64,000 bases of DNA, taken from IMG/VR virus record IMGVR_UViG_3300032117_000009, positions 1 through 64,000 of that record. One strand, given 5' to 3'. Under the pieces are notes generated by a model. That model saw only the letters and a list, made by a program, of their open reading frames with translations, did no database searches and had not been told where the DNA came from. Positions 5,270-54,400 of the stretch are shown piece after piece (position 1 is the first letter of the stretch; the number at the start of each line of letters is the position of its first letter). The DNA comes from a virus. The translations under genes were made by a program, and so were the position numbers.

Positions 5270-5389
5270 TCATGGTGTCTCTCCACCAGTCAAGTCTCGT
5301 ATGCCGACTTTCGCCATTTCTTCGAGTGTGCTCAGCATCAGATTGGTTACTCTTATAGCTGCACTCTGATTGTGGATACCATACCACAA
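5270..5389 (-). CDS. Possible 39-aa leader/micro-protein
   Basis: Open frame from a TTG with AGGA ten bases upstream, containing an internal ATG that gives MLSTLEEMAKVGIRDLTGGE plus two residues. The composition looks protein-like, and its stop lies just before the Shine-Dalgarno of the macrodomain gene, so it could act as a coupled leader. Start uncertain; may be no gene at all. Confidence 0.25.
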   Translation of the reverse strand: MWYGIHNQSAAIRVTNLMLSTLEEMAKVGIRDLTGGETP

Positions 5390-5441
5390 CTTCTTTTAAT
5401 CCTATCCCCTACTTCTATTCAAATCAAATTTTAATTTTACG

Positions 5442-5525
5442 TGCCTCTGAAGGGACTCGAACCCTTACTTCCTTTCGAAAACCAGGACCTAAACCTGACG
5501 TGTATACCAATTTCACCACAGAGGC
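5442..5525 (-). tRNA. tRNA-Leu(TAG)
   Basis: Acceptor GCCTCTG/CAGAGGC, anticodon stem TCAGG/CCTGG, loop TTTAGGT, long class-II variable arm, T-arm AAGGG TTCGAGT CCCTT. Reads CUA and probably other CUN codons. Confidence 0.92.
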
Positions 5526-5530
5526 TAAAG

Positions 5531-5612
5531 TGCCGATGGTGGGACTCGAACCCACAAGCCCGAAGGCAATTCATTTTAAGTGAATCGTGTATACCAATTC
5601 CACCACATCGGC
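5531..5612 (-). tRNA. tRNA-Leu(TAA)
   Basis: Acceptor GCCGATG/CATCGGC, anticodon stem ATTCA/TGAAT with loop CTTAAAA, variable arm TGCCTTCGGGC, T-loop TTCGAGT. Five bases separate it from tRNA-Leu(TAG). Confidence 0.93.
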
Positions 5613-5642
5613 ATATTCTTTTTTTACCTTTTCCAATCACAA

Positions 5643-5875
5643 TTTTCATTGCTGAAAGCAGGCCCATCGGTTCTCTGCCGTAAGACTTTTCAGATGCCTC
5701 TTACTTGGTCTTGGCCGTGGCTTAGATAGTTGATCACTCTATCTGCCACTACGTTCCAATATGCACTCATCCCCAGTCTTGGAGTTTGCGGAGAACCGCT
5801 CACCCCTCAGGAGTGTCCTTGTGCAGAAACTTGTCCGAGTACTTCCCGATGGGTTACTGCCCTCAGCAATGAAAA
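5643..5875 (-). ncRNA. Structured non-coding RNA candidate closed by a long-range stem
   Basis: About 233 nt. The ends pair: 13 bp (5863-5875 with 5643-5655), a 4-bp GCAG/CTGC segment and 8 bp (5846-5853 with 5663-5670). Inside, read by eye: a helix joining 5821-5830 with 5762-5766 and 5753-5757, hairpins 5801-5815 and 5788-5799, a two-part hairpin 5717-5749 (GTGGC plus AGATAG arms), and hairpin 5680-5704. The stretch is clearly less AT-rich than its surroundings. It lies between a membrane-protein gene and the two tRNA-Leu genes, so it may be co-transcribed and processed with them. I do not recognise the class; it does not show RNase P, tmRNA, SRP or 6S signatures that I can see. Confidence 0.65.
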
Positions 5876-5910
5876 CTGTATCATGGATTATTGGAATTTG
5901 CAAATTTTTA

Positions 5911-6222
5911 TTAATCGTGAGTATAGCCGTGTTCCTTGTCAAGCTCATCATGTTGTTTCTTAAGGGCACGCTTACCCAAGAAATAACCAAGTGAAAGAAG
6001 AATAACGCTTTCTATGGTGCTATAAAACAACTCTGCAGTAGCATGCGGTGCATCTGTAATAAGACCATAAGTTTTTTGAACATAGCCAGGATCTGGATTT
6101 CCACTTTGTTCACCAACCCATTGTGCATGAATTAAATGCCCGAGCATAATTACAATCAATGCTGTTGTAATAACAAGCAATGGCACTGCGATTGCAATTA
6201 CTTTACTATTAATATTTTTCAT
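5911..6222 (-). CDS. Small two-helix membrane protein
   Basis: 103 aa. An N-terminal hydrophobic helix (about 7-29, IAIAVPLLVITTALIVIMLG) and a second near 67-85 (YSTIESVILLSLGYFLG) are separated by a polar loop and followed by a charged tail. Possibly a holin or envelope protein, but no family is recognised and no lysin is adjacent. Follows the lipoprotein gene by 13 bases, suggesting a joint membrane function. Confidence 0.7.
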   Translation of the reverse strand: MKNINSKVIAIAVPLLVITTALIVIMLGHLIHAQWVGEQSGNPDPGYVQKTYGLITDAPHATAELFYSTIESVILLSLGYFLGKRALKKQHDELDKEHGYTHD

Positions 6223-6235
6223 TTTATTTTCTATT

Positions 6236-6688
6236 TCATGCTGTTGAAGCAGCTGTGTTAAGTGAGTTCATAGCATTTTCAAAATCTTGGATAGCTTGCT
6301 GCATTAAACTAGGATCGTCTGTAGCAACTGCAGAAACACAAGCTTGTGAACCACTTACAAGACTACTAAGCACAGATGCAAGAATAGCTCCCTTTGTTGG
6401 ATCTGGGTAAGGGCCATCTGATTGAAGTTGTTGTGCATCATTTCTAAGTGTAGCACAGTCTGCTCCAATTTGTGCATTACTTGCATTATTATTCGCATCG
6501 GTCTGCATTTGATTCAAATCATTAACTAACGTTTGAACGTCCTGACCATGAGCATTTTTCCATTGTTGCGTTGCGCTTACTTTACTTTGAATATTGTTGC
6601 TGCTAGACGAATTATTTGTTCCTGAAGAACAAGCTGCCATTGTTAAAGCAACCGCAATCAATGCTCCAATTACTCCATACTTCTTCAT
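6236..6688 (-). CDS. Predicted lipoprotein
   Basis: 150 aa. Signal peptide MKKYGVIGALIAVALTMAAC with a lipobox (TMAAC) placing the modified Cys at 20, followed by a Ser/Asn-rich linker and a Gln-rich helical domain with two further cysteines. Probably exported and anchored to the host membrane late in infection; superinfection exclusion is one known role of phage lipoproteins, but nothing here proves it. AGGAG Shine-Dalgarno. Confidence 0.75.
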   Translation of the reverse strand: MKKYGVIGALIAVALTMAACSSGTNNSSSSNNIQSKVSATQQWKNAHGQDVQTLVNDLNQMQTDANNNASNAQIGADCATLRNDAQQLQSDGPYPDPTKGAILASVLSSLVSGSQACVSAVATDDPSLMQQAIQDFENAMNSLNTAASTA

Positions 6689-7481: not shown

Positions 7482-7518
7482 TTTTTTCACTTTCCACTAA
7501 AGTTTTTCTGATGTAACT

Positions 7519-7527
7519 ACTATAGCA
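7519..7527 (-). promoter_or_regulatory. Extended -10 promoter motif
   Basis: TGCTATAGT on the minus strand, an extended -10 box, about 40 bases before the small basic protein. The same CATGCTATA core occurs before the helicase gene and before tRNA-Thr. No good -35 box is visible here. Confidence 0.45.
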
Positions 7528-7568
7528 TGCTTTCCACTATTTTTTTACTTTTTTATTTTTTTTGGGAA

Positions 7569-7673
7569 ATACGGTTGGGGAGCTAAGATGCGAAAAGCTC
7601 AACCCAACCGTATCCCCCTACAACCTTAGGTCATTAGGTTGTATTTGGGAAGATGCCGTGGATTCATCTCCCA
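7569..7673. ncRNA. Three consecutive hairpins in an intergenic region
   Basis: Stem 1: ATACGGTTGGG (7569-7579) with CCCAACCGTAT (7603-7613), extended inward by GAGCT/AGCTC. Stem 2: TACAACC (7619-7625) with GGTTGTA (7637-7643). Stem 3: TGGG/CCCA plus AGATG/CATCT (7646-7673) with one bulged A. No U-run follows on either strand, so these are not ordinary terminators. May be a regulatory leader or a small RNA; transcribed strand unknown. The rest of 7482-7716 holds only the promoter motif and AT-rich DNA. Confidence 0.55.
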
Positions 7674-7716
7674 TTTACTAAGTTCAAGTATATACTATAT
7701 TTACTTCTTTTTTTAT

Positions 7717-14103: not shown

Positions 14104-15617
14104 TAAAGTGCTCCATAAGCTGTTGCCACAATGTTAACTAAAGGCGATAATAATATTTCTTGAGCTGGAATTGGGTTTGAAACAATATAGGTATTTGAAA
14201 TTGGCAATCTATATTGTGATAAAGTTGAATTAAATTGTCCACCTAATTTATTTACCATTTTTTGTAAATATGTTAAATAATCTGATTGACTTGCATATTC
14301 AAAATTATAAAATAATTGAATATTTACAACTGCACCGTTAGAAACTGTGTCTGCCTGATTTCCTGAAAAAACACAACCTGTAAAAGTACTTGAATTATAC
14401 CCAGTATAAGTAAAAGAATAAACCATTCCGCTTGTAGCTGTTAAAGACCCTGTGCCAATTTTTGGAGTTGTAGATGGGATTGTAGAAGAAACGGTCAATG
14501 ATGTAAGTGCAGAAAGAGCAGAAGTGGAACTAAGATTTGTAGTAGTTGTATAAATGCTATAATGATTTGGATCTCCAAAATACTTTCCATCAGGAAAATT
14601 ATCTGGGCTATCTGCTAATCCAACTGAAATCCAATTGCCGTAATTTGTTCCACCTTGTACGTTTCTTTGAGTGCCTGGAGAACCAATTGGCTGTATTTGC
14701 GTCAAATCATTTGGTTGAGGATAAATAAAAGTTGTAACAGTAGCAACATTTGGGGAAAGGTCAATACTTTCTTCAGAAGCTCTTCTATGAGCAAAAATTG
14801 GAGCTACTGTTGTTTGACTTGGATTAAGCCAATATTGCGTTGGAAAAACAGATTGATTAATTGGATTTACAGTTGGGTTTACTGCACCAGTAGTTACATA
14901 CTTATCAAATTCAAACCATTCACTATCAGAAACTGTTTGTCTAATCGATGTTGCAATTTCGCCAGAATTGGCAGAAGAATAAACATTAACAATAGAATTG
15001 CTCGGCATTAGTAAATCTACCATTTCAGCAACAGCACTAATTTGATCTTGTGTTAAAATATTATCGCCAAAAGGAATAATAACAAATTCTGTTGGAGAGC
15101 TTGTATTAAAATTAAGTGCAGGGCTTTGCGTACTAGTATTTAAATTATATTTCCATTGTTCTACAATTCTTACTCTACAGCCCAATATGGCTTCAGCTAA
15201 CAAAGTAACGCCTAAAACAGTTGCTCCACTATTAATAGCTGTGAGCATAAGAGAAAGCCGTTCTCTGAATGCAGTATCGCCAAGTCCAATTGCATCCCAA
15301 GAAGATCTGGGAAGCTGGTCTGTGTAAGGGTCTGGATTGTTTATTAAATTATATTGCTCTTTTGGCAATCTATAAGTATTCAACAAAGAGCCAACAATAT
15401 CATCTAAATCACTGAATTCAATACCGTTGAGATTTTGTGTTATTAAAGCAGAAGTTTGTACCAGGTTAAGCTGCCCAGTACCGGAATCTCCTAAAAGAGT
15501 TTTAAGAAGAGTATATAATTTATCGGTTGGGTAAAGATTATATATAGTTTCGGGGAAATTAGAAACCTTTTTAAGGAAGTCTCTATCAACTACTACAGGA
15601 ACAATATTCCCAGCCAT
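14103..15617 (-). CDS. Baseplate-associated tail protein
   Basis: 504 aa. The helical N-terminal 160 residues (VDRDFLKKVSNFPETIYNLY ... SSWDAIGLGDTAFRERLSLM) look like a baseplate wedge partner following the J-like protein, comparable in position to tail protein I/gp53-type genes. The rest is beta-rich. Overlaps both neighbours by one base, so it belongs tightly to the baseplate cassette. Exact homologue not recognised. Confidence 0.65.
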   Translation of the reverse strand: MAGNIVPVVVDRDFLKKVSNFPETIYNLYPTDKLYTLLKTLLGDSGTGQLNLVQTSALITQNLNGIEFSDLDDIVGSLLNTYRLPKEQYNLINNPDPYTDQLPRSSWDAIGLGDTAFRERLSLMLTAINSGATVLGVTLLAEAILGCRVRIVEQWKYNLNTSTQSPALNFNTSSPTEFVIIPFGDNILTQDQISAVAEMVDLLMPSNSIVNVYSSANSGEIATSIRQTVSDSEWFEFDKYVTTGAVNPTVNPINQSVFPTQYWLNPSQTTVAPIFAHRRASEESIDLSPNVATVTTFIYPQPNDLTQIQPIGSPGTQRNVQGGTNYGNWISVGLADSPDNFPDGKYFGDPNHYSIYTTTTNLSSTSALSALTSLTVSSTIPSTTPKIGTGSLTATSGMVYSFTYTGYNSSTFTGCVFSGNQADTVSNGAVVNIQLFYNFEYASQSDYLTYLQKMVNKLGGQFNSTLSQYRLPISNTYIVSNPIPAQEILLSPLVNIVATAYGAL

Positions 15618-18600
15618 TAGAAATCACTCTGGCTTCTTGTATAGACATTTACTCTAAACAATTGTGGGAGCATATCAGCTTGTAACAAAACATCTCCTGT
15701 ATAAGTTTTAGTAACAATAATATCTCTAAAATCTACATTGCTAGCTGATCCTTGAACAATATCTTGTATTGCGTCGTAATAAGTATAAGGAGCAACCAAC
15801 TGTATTCCATAATAACTGCTAGAATCTGTTGTGGTTGCAATACGAGCATTTGTAACGCCTTGTATAGATAAGGCATTTGAAATAATTGAAGAAATCTGTA
15901 CTGGTTGATAAAAAGACAAACTATTTAAATATGTAGTCATCTTGGTATTAATATTTGACGTTACGGTTGAAGCAGAAACTGAACCATCAAGAACAACAAC
16001 AAGGTTTATCATTATAGGTTGAAAATTAGCTAAATGCGTCATGGTGCTAACGCCAAGAAGTCTTTGCTGTTGGATAAGATTATCAGTTGAAGTAACATCT
16101 GAATCTACATAATATTGTAAGTTAAATAATTGATCACCATTAGAAATTGTTGGAGTTTGACAAAAACGATATATTGTAGCGGTAATAGAACCAGTTGAAG
16201 TTGCAGCTTGGCTCATAGTAAAACCTACTCCAGGAACAACAGATTGAATTCGTGTATTCATGCTAGTACTAGATGGAATAGCTGTTCCACCAGTTACTAT
16301 TTGCCCAACGTCTAATAATGTCAAAGACGAACTCGTATCAGTAATAAAATTTGATCCAGATGTTGTGCCAACTGTTTCTGTTCGTGAAGAATATGAAGTT
16401 TGTCTAATACAAATTCCGTTCATTGCTTGTGGGCTACCAGCAGTTATTGTATTGTCATAAATTGGATAAAAATCAGAATTAATAATTACATTGTTGTAAG
16501 TTCCAGTAACTCCAGCAGATTGGCTTAATGTAACAATATTGCTAGATCTTGAGTAATTATTAATAGTTGGAATTGAAGAAAAAACACTAGATTCTGGTAT
16601 ATCAACGTTTTGTTTGTAATATACAGGATACATTTGAGTCTTTGGAACAATGCCAGTTGTTGAGCCAGATGTTAAACCTATTTTAATTGTAGGCTCAGAG
16701 CCACCGATTGGCCCACTATATGCTTGCAATTTAGAATGATTGCCATTAGCTTGACTTAAAAGAAGTTCCTGTGGATATATTCCATAAACAGGTTGTACAA
16801 CAGGTTGTTGACTAAAAATGTAATAAATATCTCCAACGACTGGTTGTGTTACTCCATCGCCAAGAACCCAATTTGATTTATTTGAAGAAGTAATTAATCC
16901 ACTGCTGCCAGGTGTTAAATTAGTACCTGAAGCATTCAAAGTTACATCTTCAGAAATCAATTGAGCATTAATACCATCAATAACAATATCTACATAATTA
17001 CTATTTATTGACCAACTTGAACTGCCAGCATTGTAAACTGGTTGATTTCTTGAAGCTAAAGAAACATAATAATACGTAAAAGATACAATGCTGCCAGGAT
17101 AAAGCCAAGAATAATTATTACCATTTGAAAAATATATTGATAATGAAGCTATAGTTATAACATTTCCTAAAGGAGATGCTGTACCATTTGTAAAAATGGC
17201 AGGGGTTACTACATAAGTATAATCAGTTGAAGGCGAAGCAGTTTGTATTAAACCATTAGAATTGGTTCCTTGAATTGCTTCAAGTCCTTGAGGATAAAAA
17301 TATTGTGAATCAGGTATTGACGTTGTAATGAAAGTAGAGAATGTATATGGGTTTGTAACCTGGAACAATAATTGAATTCCAGCTCCACCAAAACCTGCAG
17401 ACATTGAATTGTTTATTGTAAAATAGTTCCCACCAAAATAACCGCTTGTTATTACATAAGAATTTGCTGGAACGTTTGGTCCGTAAACATAAGAACCTAT
17501 ATCAGGGGGGTAAAGAGTAGAAGTGTCTCCAATTTGTGCTGGTGTTCCGCCTGACCAACTTACCACAGATCCACTATCAATTCTGCCGAACATAAATGTT
17601 AAGTTTGTATCTAATGGTTTTGCAAAATTAAAATTGCAATAAGCTAATTGGTTTATTGTGCCAAGTAAACCAGAAGGTACTGACCAAAATGCATTTGCGC
17701 CAGTGCCATTTAATGAAGCAAAATTAAAAGAAAGATATTGATTAACAGTACTAACATTTACTGGTGTTCCGCCAGTTACAATTGCTGAATAGGTGAAAAA
17801 ATCTATATACATAGCTTGTGTATAGCCATTTGCATTGTTATTTTGTGTGACAATGCATTGATACCCATATTGCTTTAAAACATAATTAAATGCTGTTTGG
17901 ACATTACCTATAAAAGTTGCTGCTGTTGAATTGTAATTAGCAGTATAAGATGCAGAAGTGCCGTTTGGCGAAGTATATGTTACAGTAAAGCTTCCACCAG
18001 TTGCAGTAACATATAAGTTTGCTGTGTTATAAATTGGGATTAAACTAACAAGTTGTTGTATATCATTAATGATTGGTCCATTAAAAGCATAATTTAAATT
18101 GTTTTGTAATTGCTGAACTGTTGTAAGAGTTGGGTCATAATTGTTTGTTAATAAACTATTTGTTGTTGCAGGTATGCAAAACGTTATTGGTGCAGGAATG
18201 GTAGCGTTTGCCCCTGGGCTAATTGTAGTAGTTTGAGAAGTTGTGATAGTTGTCGTACCGTCAGAATTTGAAGTAATCGTATTAACAATCGCTAACATTG
18301 TTAAAGGAATATATATCGTTGGATTATTAATAGTTCCAGAAACAATATTCATACCAGGATAAATACCATTTGAATTAGTTCCAGATGGCAAAACAATTGT
18401 TATAACAGAACTTGAGCCAGAACCTGTAACTGTCCAGGTGGCATTAACGGTAACAGAAGCATATGGTTGAAATTTATGATAACTTTGAATATACCCAGCA
18501 CCATTGTTAGATGTTAAAGAACTTGACGTATATTTGCTTGCAATTTTTAATTGTGTTTGAATTTGCAAATGCTCAGTATTTTGTTCCTGTGGTCCTAAAA

Positions 18601-50878: not shown

Positions 50879-53800
50879 TTACATCTTTCCTTCATCATTT
50901 TGAAAATCTAAACCAGCACCAGTGTTACCATATCCAACTTCACCATCATCAGCAACACCATGCTGCATAGCTTCATTCGCAGCTTCATTATCGCTACCAA
51001 CTGCATTTGCAACACGATAATTTTCTTCAAAATCTTCTAAATTAAACTTTTCGTATTGGCTATCTGTAACAATTTTCATACCTTTTATTATTGTCATTTT
51101 ACGACGAAGTTGCTGCTCTTTAGGAACACCAAAATACATACGACCACCATATTCAGCTACATAACCATCATTATTAGATGCAGTTTTTGTAGAGGCGGTT
51201 TTAAAATCAACAGAATTTCTTTCTCCACAATTAGGGCATGGATTATTTAAAGTTTTCCCAACGAGTGAATCTTTATCAAGATCATCATAATCGCCTAACC
51301 AATCACAGGAAGAGCATTCAACTGGATTATCGTAGATATCAAAATCATAATCGCCATTGTTAAAATCATCATCATATTCATATGAAGAACCAGTTACAGA
51401 AGATTTCTTTGTTTTCTTTGTATCTGTTTTCTTTTTCGTTGGCTTCTTAGGTTGTGATTTCTTTTGATCATCAGATTCTGCTGGGCGCTGCGGTGGAATC
51501 ATACCTGGCATAAGGAACGGGCCTACCATGCTATCTGCATCAGCTTGCGTACCAGGAGTAAGAATATTAGGTGCTGATGGTTGTGATGTTATGTCAGCAA
51601 TGCCTTGTGGTGACATTTGTGCAATCATTTCAGGATTTTCTTGCTGCATATTGTATGCCATGAACTCTTGATAGTATTCAGGAGGAATAGGAAGTTCAAG
51701 AGCAATAAGACGCTCAAAGAGATCTTTTTTAAACCTTTGCTCAGCAACAACAGTTTGAAGTTTTTCTTCTGTCTTAGCTTCAATTTCATCTTTAAATTCA
51801 ATAGGAATATTGATAGCCATAGTTTTAAGAGAAACAGGAAAACCTTGACCAGCAAGCTCCATAACAAATTGACGCTCTACCTGCTCATCTCTTAAGTTCA
51901 TAGATTTAAACTGAACATCAGGGATGGCAAGTTTTGGACGCTCTTCTACGTACTCTTCTCCAGTTTCTTCATTTACAAGAAGAACTGTTTCCATGACAGG
52001 AATTCGAGCATTGCCAACTTTACGATATTCATAATGTCCTTGACGTTCAGCAACAGGACGCATACGTTCTTGAACAAATCTTGCAATCTTCTTCTGGTAT
52101 GTTGTGAGCATGTTAGTAATAAGCTCACGGTTAAGGGCACCAGAGGCATATGGGGCACCGCTCTTACCACCTTGCAGAAGTTCAGCACCAATACCGAACA
52201 CTTGCATAACCTTAGACTCAACACGTAAGAAGTCCTGGTCAAGACGAGGCATAGCTTCTCTACCGAATGCATTCTTAATATCAAGTCCATGGTGATAAGT
52301 CATCAAACGGAAGTCTGAATTGATAGCAAGTGCTAGGTCATCACGAAGTTGTTGAAGCTCAGTAGCGTCAGGAATCCAGGGTCCATCCTCGTCTACGTCT
52401 GGAAGACCAAGGGTAGCAAGAATAAGTGGTGAATATAACCTATCAGCAATAGCGTCTTGAGCAGCATTAAGCGATTCTTCAAGCATAAGCATACGGAAAG
52501 CACGAAGAAGAATTGGGCTACCGTGTTCTGACCATGGGTTAGTATTGTGCGTTACTAACCCAGCAGTTATGTGGGTGTGATAGTCGGCAATACCAATTGC
52601 CATAGTTTCTTCATCTTGTCCTAGCTCAATTTTTATAATTGAATCATAGGGGAAGTTGGATGGACGAGTATTTTTAACCGGAATTTCATCTGGAATGGCT
52701 TTTCTATTGCAAAGGGGTTTAACAAAGCTAGCGAGAATAGACTTTGACTCTTTTTTGCCAACTATTAAGCGATAACCATAGCCAGAATCTGGAGCATAAT
52801 CATATTTTGGAACATCATAGATTCTTGACTCTACGCCTAAGAAAGAAAGAAGTATTTGACAATCTTCAAGCAAAGGACGATTCATACTTGTCCAAACAAC
52901 CATGCCGTTTGAATCTACGTGGCCATCTGTGTCAAAATATCCTGCTAGGAATTCTGACCAAAATTCTTTTCCACCTTCCCAAACAAATGCAGGGACTCTC
53001 TTTGTGTGCGTTGTTTGTCCTCTAACTCCACAATCTACAAGTAGTTGTTTGATTAGATTTGGATTTTTAGTTTTTTCTCCCTGAGAAACAATCCATGAAA
53101 TTTTTGTAGATCCAGCTTGTGAAAGCTTGCAACCATAGGAAGCAACAAACTTATTCATCCAATCAATATTTTCTTGATCTTCATTATGGAACATAATTGT
53201 CTTATGCCCATAACTACCATCGCCAACCATCATTCCAAGGAATCTAGCAATGTCTTTTTCTTCATTGTTGTTTTCTTTATTAGAATAATTGTGTCCAACC
53301 AAAAGGTTTGTTCCAATAGTAAGATCAGAAGCTTCGACCCAACCATTTTCAGTAAGAAATGGGTGCTCTGAGTTAACACCAATCCTTCTACCTTGTTTTG
53401 TTGTAATCCAATAAATTGGCTCTGGATCGTTTATCCCCTGATGACTTACAGTGCTATGTACAATCTTATTGGCAGTCTCATCCCATGCAAGAACTTCATC
53501 GCCAACAGCAAGGTCCTGAGCTTTAATTGGACCAGATGGAGTCATGATATCAGTAGACCCAACAACACATTTAAATTTAATCTGTTTCATAAGAACATCA
53601 GAAACAGGAATTTCTTTATCCTGTCGTGCCCAGGCTACAACATCTGGGTAAAGTTGCATAAGTGCTGCATACTCTGGAGCAGGATCACGAGTATCAATAA
53701 GCTTCTTGATTTCATCAGGCACCTTGATGTGATACTGATAAGTTCTAAGTGCTCTATTCTTAGCTACAATAACGTCATTTGGGTTAATAATCTCGTCATC

Positions 53801-54400
53801 TTCCCAGGCACCAATACCATCGTGCCAAGAACCCATAGCAAAAGCTTCACCTACGGTCCAATGCTCACGGCCAAGGTCAAAAAGGAATTCGTCATAATCA
53901 AGACCATCAAAGAAAAGTTCTTGATAAAAATCAGCAATTTTTGGGTCTTGGTGAGTGAATTCAATATCTAGAAGTGGAAAACGAGTATAGATATCAATAA
54001 GCGAAGGTACGAGATAGTGAGTCGTGTACATAAGACGAGTCCAGTCACGAATCTTCTGAATCTGCTCGTCGGGGTCCTCCATGTTGAACCACCAAGTACG
54101 CTCACGCCAATACTCGAAAGGATCGTGGAGCTTAGGCCATGCCCATTGAGCATCGGTTCCCATAGCAGCACCTGTACGTCTGCCCATACCTTCCATATTG
54201 CGAGCAGATTGCTCATCAAATTGAGAAGATGCAGTTCTACCATCAAGGCGTTTTCTAGCTCTTGATTCAGAAGATTGCTGATTCATCACATCTTGTTTAA
54301 AAGATCCAGGAAGAATGAGCTTTTTAGCAGCAGCTCTTGATGCAGCTGCTTTGCGAATAGGTTCCCTTGGTAGGGTCAAGCCCTCGCCGTTATTAGCCAT
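50879..54400 (-). CDS. Portal protein with in-frame intein
   Basis: 1173 aa; 831 aa after splicing. Extein features: DPFEYWRERTWWFNMEDPDE, LVPSLIDIYTRFPLLD, a helix-rich core after the intein (NPWSEHGSPILLRAFRM, EELLQGGKSGAPYASGA-like clip region) and a C-terminal Lys-rich stretch plus a zinc ribbon (CSSCDW...CPNCGERN). The intein occupies residues 278-619. Portal forms the dodecameric DNA channel at one capsid vertex. Position before protease and capsid genes supports the call. Confidence 0.85.
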   Translation of the reverse strand: MANNGEGLTLPREPIRKAAASRAAAKKLILPGSFKQDVMNQQSSESRARKRLDGRTASSQFDEQSARNMEGMGRRTGAAMGTDAQWAWPKLHDPFEYWRERTWWFNMEDPDEQIQKIRDWTRLMYTTHYLVPSLIDIYTRFPLLDIEFTHQDPKIADFYQELFFDGLDYDEFLFDLGREHWTVGEAFAMGSWHDGIGAWEDDEIINPNDVIVAKNRALRTYQYHIKVPDEIKKLIDTRDPAPEYAALMQLYPDVVAWARQDKEIPVSDVLMKQIKFKCVVGSTDIMTPSGPIKAQDLAVGDEVLAWDETANKIVHSTVSHQGINDPEPIYWITTKQGRRIGVNSEHPFLTENGWVEASDLTIGTNLLVGHNYSNKENNNEEKDIARFLGMMVGDGSYGHKTIMFHNEDQENIDWMNKFVASYGCKLSQAGSTKISWIVSQGEKTKNPNLIKQLLVDCGVRGQTTHTKRVPAFVWEGGKEFWSEFLAGYFDTDGHVDSNGMVVWTSMNRPLLEDCQILLSFLGVESRIYDVPKYDYAPDSGYGYRLIVGKKESKSILASFVKPLCNRKAIPDEIPVKNTRPSNFPYDSIIKIELGQDEETMAIGIADYHTHITAGLVTHNTNPWSEHGSPILLRAFRMLMLEESLNAAQDAIADRLYSPLILATLGLPDVDEDGPWIPDATELQQLRDDLALAINSDFRLMTYHHGLDIKNAFGREAMPRLDQDFLRVESKVMQVFGIGAELLQGGKSGAPYASGALNRELITNMLTTYQKKIARFVQERMRPVAERQGHYEYRKVGNARIPVMETVLLVNEETGEEYVEERPKLAIPDVQFKSMNLRDEQVERQFVMELAGQGFPVSLKTMAINIPIEFKDEIEAKTEEKLQTVVAEQRFKKDLFERLIALELPIPPEYYQEFMAYNMQQENPEMIAQMSPQGIADITSQPSAPNILTPGTQADADSMVGPFLMPGMIPPQRPAESDDQKKSQPKKPTKKKTDTKKTKKSSVTGSSYEYDDDFNNGDYDFDIYDNPVECSSCDWLGDYDDLDKDSLVGKTLNNPCPNCGERNSVDFKTASTKTASNNDGYVAEYGGRMYFGVPKEQQLRRKMTIIKGMKIVTDSQYEKFNLEDFEENYRVANAVGSDNEAANEAMQHGVADDGEVGYGNTGAGLDFQNDEGKM
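52544..53569 (-). other. Intein (342 aa) with DOD/LAGLIDADG homing endonuclease
   Basis: Begins at Cys278 (CVVGSTDIMTPSGPIKAQDL), has NSEHPFLT as block B, endonuclease motifs FLGMMVGDGSYG and EFLAGYFDTDGHVDSNGM, and ends TAGLVTHN at Asn619 with Thr620 as the first downstream extein residue. All splice-essential residues are present, so splicing is expected. The +1 residue is Thr rather than the commoner Cys or Ser. Confidence 0.9.

What the first reader, a model, noticed from the sequence alone, without database searches (positions are those of the whole stretch)
5643..5875. Unrecognised structured RNA of about 233 nt next to phage tRNA genes
Seen directly: the two ends are complementary over 25 bp in three blocks (13, 4 and 8 bp), and at least five internal helices can be drawn without conflict. 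Base composition is higher in GC than surroundings, and no credible protein reads through it. Phage tRNA clusters are known sites of large RNAs such as GOLLD and ROOL, but this element is much shorter and I see none of the RNase P, tmRNA, SRP or 6S signatures. It could be a new class.
Basis: partly seen in the sequence, partly recalled or inferred. Interest (0 to 1): 0.78.

Follow-up and report, generated by a model that had tools for sequence, protein, structure and literature searches.

The report
Orphan folded RNA beside phage tRNAs
A 233-base stretch between a small gene and two leucine tRNA genes of a freshwater phage can fold into an unusually stable branched RNA, but no relative of it turned up in any collection searched, so it is a promising single example and not a demonstrated new RNA class.

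Summary
Window 5643-5875 has complementary ends, many internal helices, high GC (49.8% against 37.5%), no credible protein and no credible Rfam match. It is the most structured of 8,252 scanned windows in its 124-kb genome. The RNA strand is very probably minus, that of all neighbouring genes and tRNAs: the fold is stronger there (-95.0 against -84.5 kcal/mol), the two breaks in the outer stem become G-U pairs, and the core alone stays unusually stable only there. The predicted shape is an 18 + 8 bp stalk carrying a multi-way junction.

No homologue was found by BLAST, exact patterns or a single-sequence covariance model. Covariation therefore could not be tested, and "new class" is unproven. 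A syntenic relative lacks the element.

The best-supported reading is a lineage-specific stable noncoding RNA, cotranscribed with tRNA-Leu(UAA)-tRNA-Leu(UAG) and probably freed by a host double-strand RNase and RNase P. It is comparable in context, not in sequence, to T4 rnaC and rnaD. A better-conserved, apparently noncoding segment lies nearby at 5270-5389, 92% identical in a second phage.

The parts
5643..5875 (-). Structured element, 233 nt, probably a noncoding RNA; 76 predicted pairs
   Evidence: fold -95.0 kcal/mol, z -6.7; first of 8,252 windows
5857..5874 (-). P1 stalk, 5' side (18 bp, with two G-U pairs)
   Evidence: mean pair probability 0.99
5644..5661 (-). P1 stalk, 3' side
5846..5853 (-). 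P2, 5' side, CCCAUCGG (8 bp)
   Evidence: mean pair probability 1.00
5663..5670 (-). P2, 3' side, CCGAUGGG
5823..5829 (-). P3, 5' side (7 bp), closes the multi-way junction
   Evidence: mean pair probability 0.81
5672..5678 (-). P3, 3' side
5809..5819 (-). Short hairpin AGGA-CAC-UCCU
   Evidence: mean pair probability 0.84
5781..5806 (-). GC-rich hairpin with GA/AA internal loop and UUCU loop
   Evidence: mean pair probabilities 0.96 and 1.00
5682..5780 (-). Long arm with several internal loops and a 9-nt terminal loop
   Evidence: mean pair probabilities 0.65-1.00
5791..5798 (-). CGGUUCUC, able to pair with GAGAACCG at 5668-5675 instead (alternative fold, about 6 kcal/mol less stable)
   Evidence: constrained fold -88.8 against -95.0
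5530..5612 (-). tRNA-Leu(UAA), 30 nt downstream of the element
5441..5525 (-). tRNA-Leu(UAG)
5911..6222 (-). 103-aa gene upstream, stop codon 35 nt before the element; relatives in seven IMG/VR loci

Best explanation
A lineage-specific structured noncoding RNA encoded on the minus strand inside the phage's tRNA operon. Proposed working: (1) it is transcribed with the 103-aa gene upstream and tRNA-Leu(UAA)-tRNA-Leu(UAG) downstream; (2) it folds during transcription into a 26-bp stalk (18 + 8 bp with an asymmetric bulge) carrying a multi-way junction; (3) host RNases free it, a double-strand-specific enzyme of the RNase III type cutting or trimming the stalk and RNase P cutting at the 5' end of tRNA-Leu(UAA), much as flanking stems of precursor rRNA are used; (4) the stable product acts in trans during infection. 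Shown: the fold is exceptional, the minus strand is favoured, and the context is gene-element-tRNA-tRNA with 35- and 30-nt spacers and no terminator-like site between element and tRNA. Inferred: transcription, processing, stability. The target is unknown; binding a protein or part of the translation machinery is my best guess from the tRNA context alone.
For: Most structured window of the genome. Minus z -6.7 against plus z -5.6. Core without the stalk: z -3.06 on minus, -1.28 on plus. The two stem mismatches become G-U pairs on minus. Most helices have pair probability 0.8-1.0. It sits in one of the few large ORF-poor gaps of a genome that a simple ORF count puts at 96% coding, 162 of 163 ORFs on the same strand. 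No terminator-like site between element and tRNA. Precedent: T4 transcribes rnaC and rnaD, of unknown role, from its tRNA region (PMC3014915), validated by Northern blot (PMC9697503) and annotated beside tRNA-Arg; they have no credible Rfam match either.
Against: No homologue anywhere searched, so no covariation support. The syntenic relative L108 has the same tRNAs and neighbours but no such element by BLAST or by model in its record. Folding stability alone does not prove function. Promoter-like sites are at chance level (10 found, 10.2 expected). No expression data. Part of the strand preference is expected: minus windows average 3.4 kcal/mol more stable than plus windows in this genome, sd 9.65.
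Confidence: 0.5

Rival explanations
1. An operon-level processing or stability structure only: the stalk separates the 103-aa mRNA from the tRNA precursor or protects an mRNA end, and the enclosed sequence has no role of its own.
For: Position between mRNA and tRNA with short spacers. A related phage (L179) has several unrelated long-stem structures in ORF-poor stretches near tRNA and small ORFs, which suggests that such stems are common and interchangeable in these phages.
Against: The core inside the stalk is itself more stable than shuffles on the minus strand (z -3.06); a mere processing site would not need 233 nt in a 96%-coding genome.
Confidence: 0.27
2. A DNA-level mobile or inserted element (MITE-like) with 25-bp terminal inverted repeats, recently inserted beside the tRNA genes.
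For: Inverted repeat ends, higher GC than the genome, absent from the syntenic relative, single isolated occurrence.
Against: Single copy in its genome; terminal-repeat patterns give no match in genome contigs or IMG/VR; no evident target-site duplication on reading the flanks; structure continues throughout the interior and favours one strand.
Confidence: 0.1
3. Structure by chance or relic: a foreign or decayed stretch (for example of a gene or intron) that folds well but does nothing.
For: No homologue and no conservation evidence; the outer stem alone is reachable by chance in about 1 of 60 random windows.
Against: First of 8,252 windows, 0 of 200 shuffles; no Rfam intron match and no PHROGs match for overlapping frames; phages purge useless DNA.
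Confidence: 0.13

Closest known systems
T4 rnaC and rnaD (species 1 and 2 RNA)
   Same: RNAs of unknown role encoded on the same strand as, and directly beside, phage tRNA genes; also without a credible Rfam match (PMC3014915).
   Different: 139 and 119 nt against 233 nt. rnaC folds with a tRNA-like T arm, which this element lacks. No match by the single-sequence model beyond generic stems. Phage lineages differ. The T4 RNAs are detected experimentally (PMC9697503); this one is not.
GOLLD and ROOL RNAs
   Same: Ornate RNAs of phages and prophages, often near tRNA islands (PMC12286853).
   Different: Many GOLLD RNAs exceed 800 nt; this is 233 nt and has no Rfam match.
Bacterial Y RNA (YrlA, RF02553)
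   Same: Paired ends; three cluster C mycobacteriophages related to this phage carry Ro (TROVE) genes.
   Different: No Ro gene in this genome and no Y RNA match within the element.
Precursor-rRNA processing stalks cut by RNase III (my own knowledge)
   Same: A long helix formed by the two ends of a stable RNA inside a transcript that also holds tRNAs.
   Different: No cleavage evidence here; the enclosed RNA is small and unidentified.

Membership tests
GOLLD / ROOL | match to the family covariance model | tested here: not met
   no match at gathering score in the window nor at E <= 10 across 5400-6240
GOLLD / ROOL | length of many hundreds of nt | tested here: not met
   the element is 233 nt between a stop codon at 5911 and a tRNA at 5612
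GOLLD / ROOL | encoded near phage tRNA genes | tested here: met
Bacterial Y RNA | Ro (TROVE) protein gene in the same genome | tested here: not met
   none in G000; Myrna, Phabba and McWolfish have one
Bacterial Y RNA | match to the YrlA model | tested here: not met
   only a 14.8-bit hit over the tRNA genes, not the element
Retron msr-msd | adjacent reverse transcriptase gene | tested here: not met
   no RVT_1 in G000
tmRNA | tRNA-like ends and tag reading frame | tested here: not met
   ARAGORN finds none; no Rfam match
T4 rnaC / rnaD | sequence or structure similarity | tested here: not met
   only generic short stems match the model in the T4 tRNA region
T4 rnaC / rnaD | stable transcript from a phage tRNA operon | not testable with these tools
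   no RNA data for this uncultured phage
MITE-like element | multiple copies with the same terminal repeats | tested here: not met
   single copy in genome; zero pattern matches in genome contigs and IMG/VR
New structured-RNA class | several homologues with covarying base pairs | tested here: inconclusive
   no homologue found, so covariation could not be measured

The most novel reading that the evidence does not exclude
A genuinely new family of phage RNA: a compact multi-way-junction RNA on a 26-bp stalk, cut out of a tRNA operon, with a trans-acting role in infection or counter-defence, evolving so fast that only one member is visible in present data.
Probability: 0.25. Interest if true: 0.6.

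Novelty: new member of a known kind. Interest (0 to 1): 0.35.

Why it matters
Phages of several lineages keep folded RNAs of unknown function among their tRNA genes (T4 rnaC and rnaD, GOLLD, ROOL). If this one is real, it extends that habit to freshwater relatives of the cluster C mycobacteriophages and offers a compact 233-nt object that could be probed and structurally solved. It also suggests that such RNAs can be singletons that homology-based class discovery would miss.

Tried and rejected
Rfam at strict and permissive thresholds: nothing credible on the element. BLASTN against 49 related phage records, 50,697 phage records and 72,556 plasmids: only short chance matches or none. Exact patterns from the element in IMG/VR and genome contigs: none, or chance. 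Single-sequence covariance model over 1.36 Mb of loci, 49 records and 21 records including Myrna, E3, Stormageddon, Phabba and McWolfish: no credible match. With filters off the best matches are long stems, chiefly in L179, at E-values any inverted repeat can reach; not counted as homologues. Relatives were sought through the 103-aa gene, major capsid protein, helicase and DUF7242 protein: the closest by capsid protein that I could check do not cover this region, and those that cover it are distant. MITE, retron, Y RNA, tmRNA and protein-coding readings were rejected as in the membership table. A replication-origin reading has no support: cumulative GC skew shows no extreme at the element.

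Full report
Origin and setting. The window is the first 64 kb of a 124,688-base virus record. Its major capsid protein is about 63% identical to those of cluster C mycobacteriophages such as Myrna and Phabba and of Rhodococcus and Gordonia phages, and 62-100% identical to many IMG/VR contigs. A transglycosylase-like domain gene (PF06737) also fits an actinobacterial host. A simple ORF count gives 96% coding, 162 of 163 ORFs on the minus strand. Two tRNA clusters are present. On the minus strand the order is: lipoprotein-like gene, 103-aa gene (ends 5911), the element (5875-5643), tRNA-Leu(UAA), tRNA-Leu(UAG), a conserved segment (5389-5270), macro-domain gene.

Check of the observation. The ends pair over 13 + 4 + 8 bp. 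On the minus strand the two intervening mismatches are G-U pairs, so P1 is 18 bp, followed by an asymmetric bulge and the 8-bp P2. The minus strand folds at -95.0 kcal/mol (z -6.7, 0 of 200 shuffles), the plus strand at -84.5 (z -5.6). Over the genome, both strands, GC corrected, this is the most structured of 8,252 windows. The stalk alone is notable but reachable by chance (one or more of 60 random 64-kb sequences exceeded it). The core inside the stalk is z -3.06 on minus and -1.28 on plus. The strand argument is moderate: minus windows are on average 3.4 kcal/mol more stable than plus windows here.

Predicted anatomy (minus strand, numbered 1-233 from 5875): P1 2-19/215-232; P2 23-30/206-213; P3 47-53/198-204; hairpin 57-67; hairpin 70-95 with a GA/AA internal loop and UUCU loop; long arm 96-194 with several internal loops and a 9-nt terminal loop. 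An alternative 8-bp pairing, CGGUUCUC 78-85 with GAGAACCG 201-208, would replace P3 and the GC-rich hairpin and costs about 6 kcal/mol; a switch is possible but unsupported.

Search for relatives. The most useful relative is L108 (helicase 76% identical), which has the same tRNAs (Lys, Glu, Gln, Leu, Leu, Arg, Val) and a macro-domain gene but lacks the element. G047, closer by capsid protein (97%), aligns to about 45-86 kb of this genome and does not cover the region. The element is therefore recently acquired, lost elsewhere, or too fast-evolving to be seen. This is the main weakness: there is no evolutionary test of the structure.

Interpretation. The best reading is a stable RNA made from the tRNA operon and freed by processing of its stalk. 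Spacers of 35 nt (to the upstream stop codon) and 30 nt (to tRNA-Leu), no terminator-like site between element and tRNA, and promoter-like sites only at chance level argue for cotranscription. A double-strand-specific RNase acting on P1 and RNase P acting on the tRNA would release it; this is inference. The nearest experimental precedent is T4, whose tRNA region makes rnaC and rnaD (PMC3014915, PMC9697503); neither has a credible Rfam match, so absence from Rfam is weak evidence of novelty. The main rival is that the structure serves only processing or mRNA stability; a related phage with several long-stem structures in ORF-poor stretches (L179) makes that plausible.

What it is not. GOLLD, ROOL, Y RNA, tmRNA, retron RNA and MITE readings fail defining features that were tested (see membership test).

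Verdict. Observation confirmed; interpretation partly supported; a single unverified example of a known kind of thing, a folded RNA of unknown role in a phage tRNA cluster. 'New member of a known kind' refers to that loose kind and not to membership of any sequence family. The nearby segment 5270-5389 may be the better lead for a conserved RNA: it is 92% identical without gaps to a segment between tRNA genes of L108, where neighbouring genes are about 67-69% identical, and its first hairpin has a compensatory G-C to A-U change. A short reading frame inside it is also kept, so coding is not excluded.

Noticed in passing
window 5270-5389 (minus): 120-nt segment 92% identical, without gaps, to L108:14548-14667 between tRNA-Lys and tRNA-Glu, while neighbouring genes are about 67-69% identical in DNA; one compensatory pair change in its 5' hairpin; no Rfam match and no match in the phage collection. 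A 24-residue frame (NLMLSTLEEMAKVGIRDLTGGETP) is largely kept in both, so it may code.
   Followed up: partly
L179:13080-15030 and 16200-16900: ORF-poor stretch around tRNA-Asn in a related phage (G041) with at least four long-stem structures, two of them diverged copies of each other (14134-14220 and 16223-16373), and repeats of CCTGGGTA...AACTGCCC; some sit just upstream of ribosome-binding-site-like sequences. No Rfam match at gathering score apart from the tRNA.
   Followed up: partly
L178:132-195 (-) and 6309-6370 (-): Two type II hammerhead ribozymes (RF02276, above gathering score) on either side of tRNA-Leu in a related phage (G010).
   Followed up: no
window 50879-54400 (minus): Large gene, probably the portal protein, interrupted by an intein with a LAGLIDADG endonuclease domain.
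   Followed up: partly
L117:5229-5247 (minus): 19-nt exact match to the middle of segment 5270-5389, in an apparently noncoding stretch that ends in a terminator-like hairpin in another contig; may be chance.
   Followed up: partly
window 7491-7716: 226-nt ORF-free gap in the same tRNA region with unusually stable minus-strand folding (z-like -3.0).
   Followed up: no
Mycobacterium phages Myrna, Phabba, McWolfish (W01, W04, W05): Carry a Ro (TROVE) protein gene that the freshwater relatives examined, including this genome, lack.
   Followed up: no
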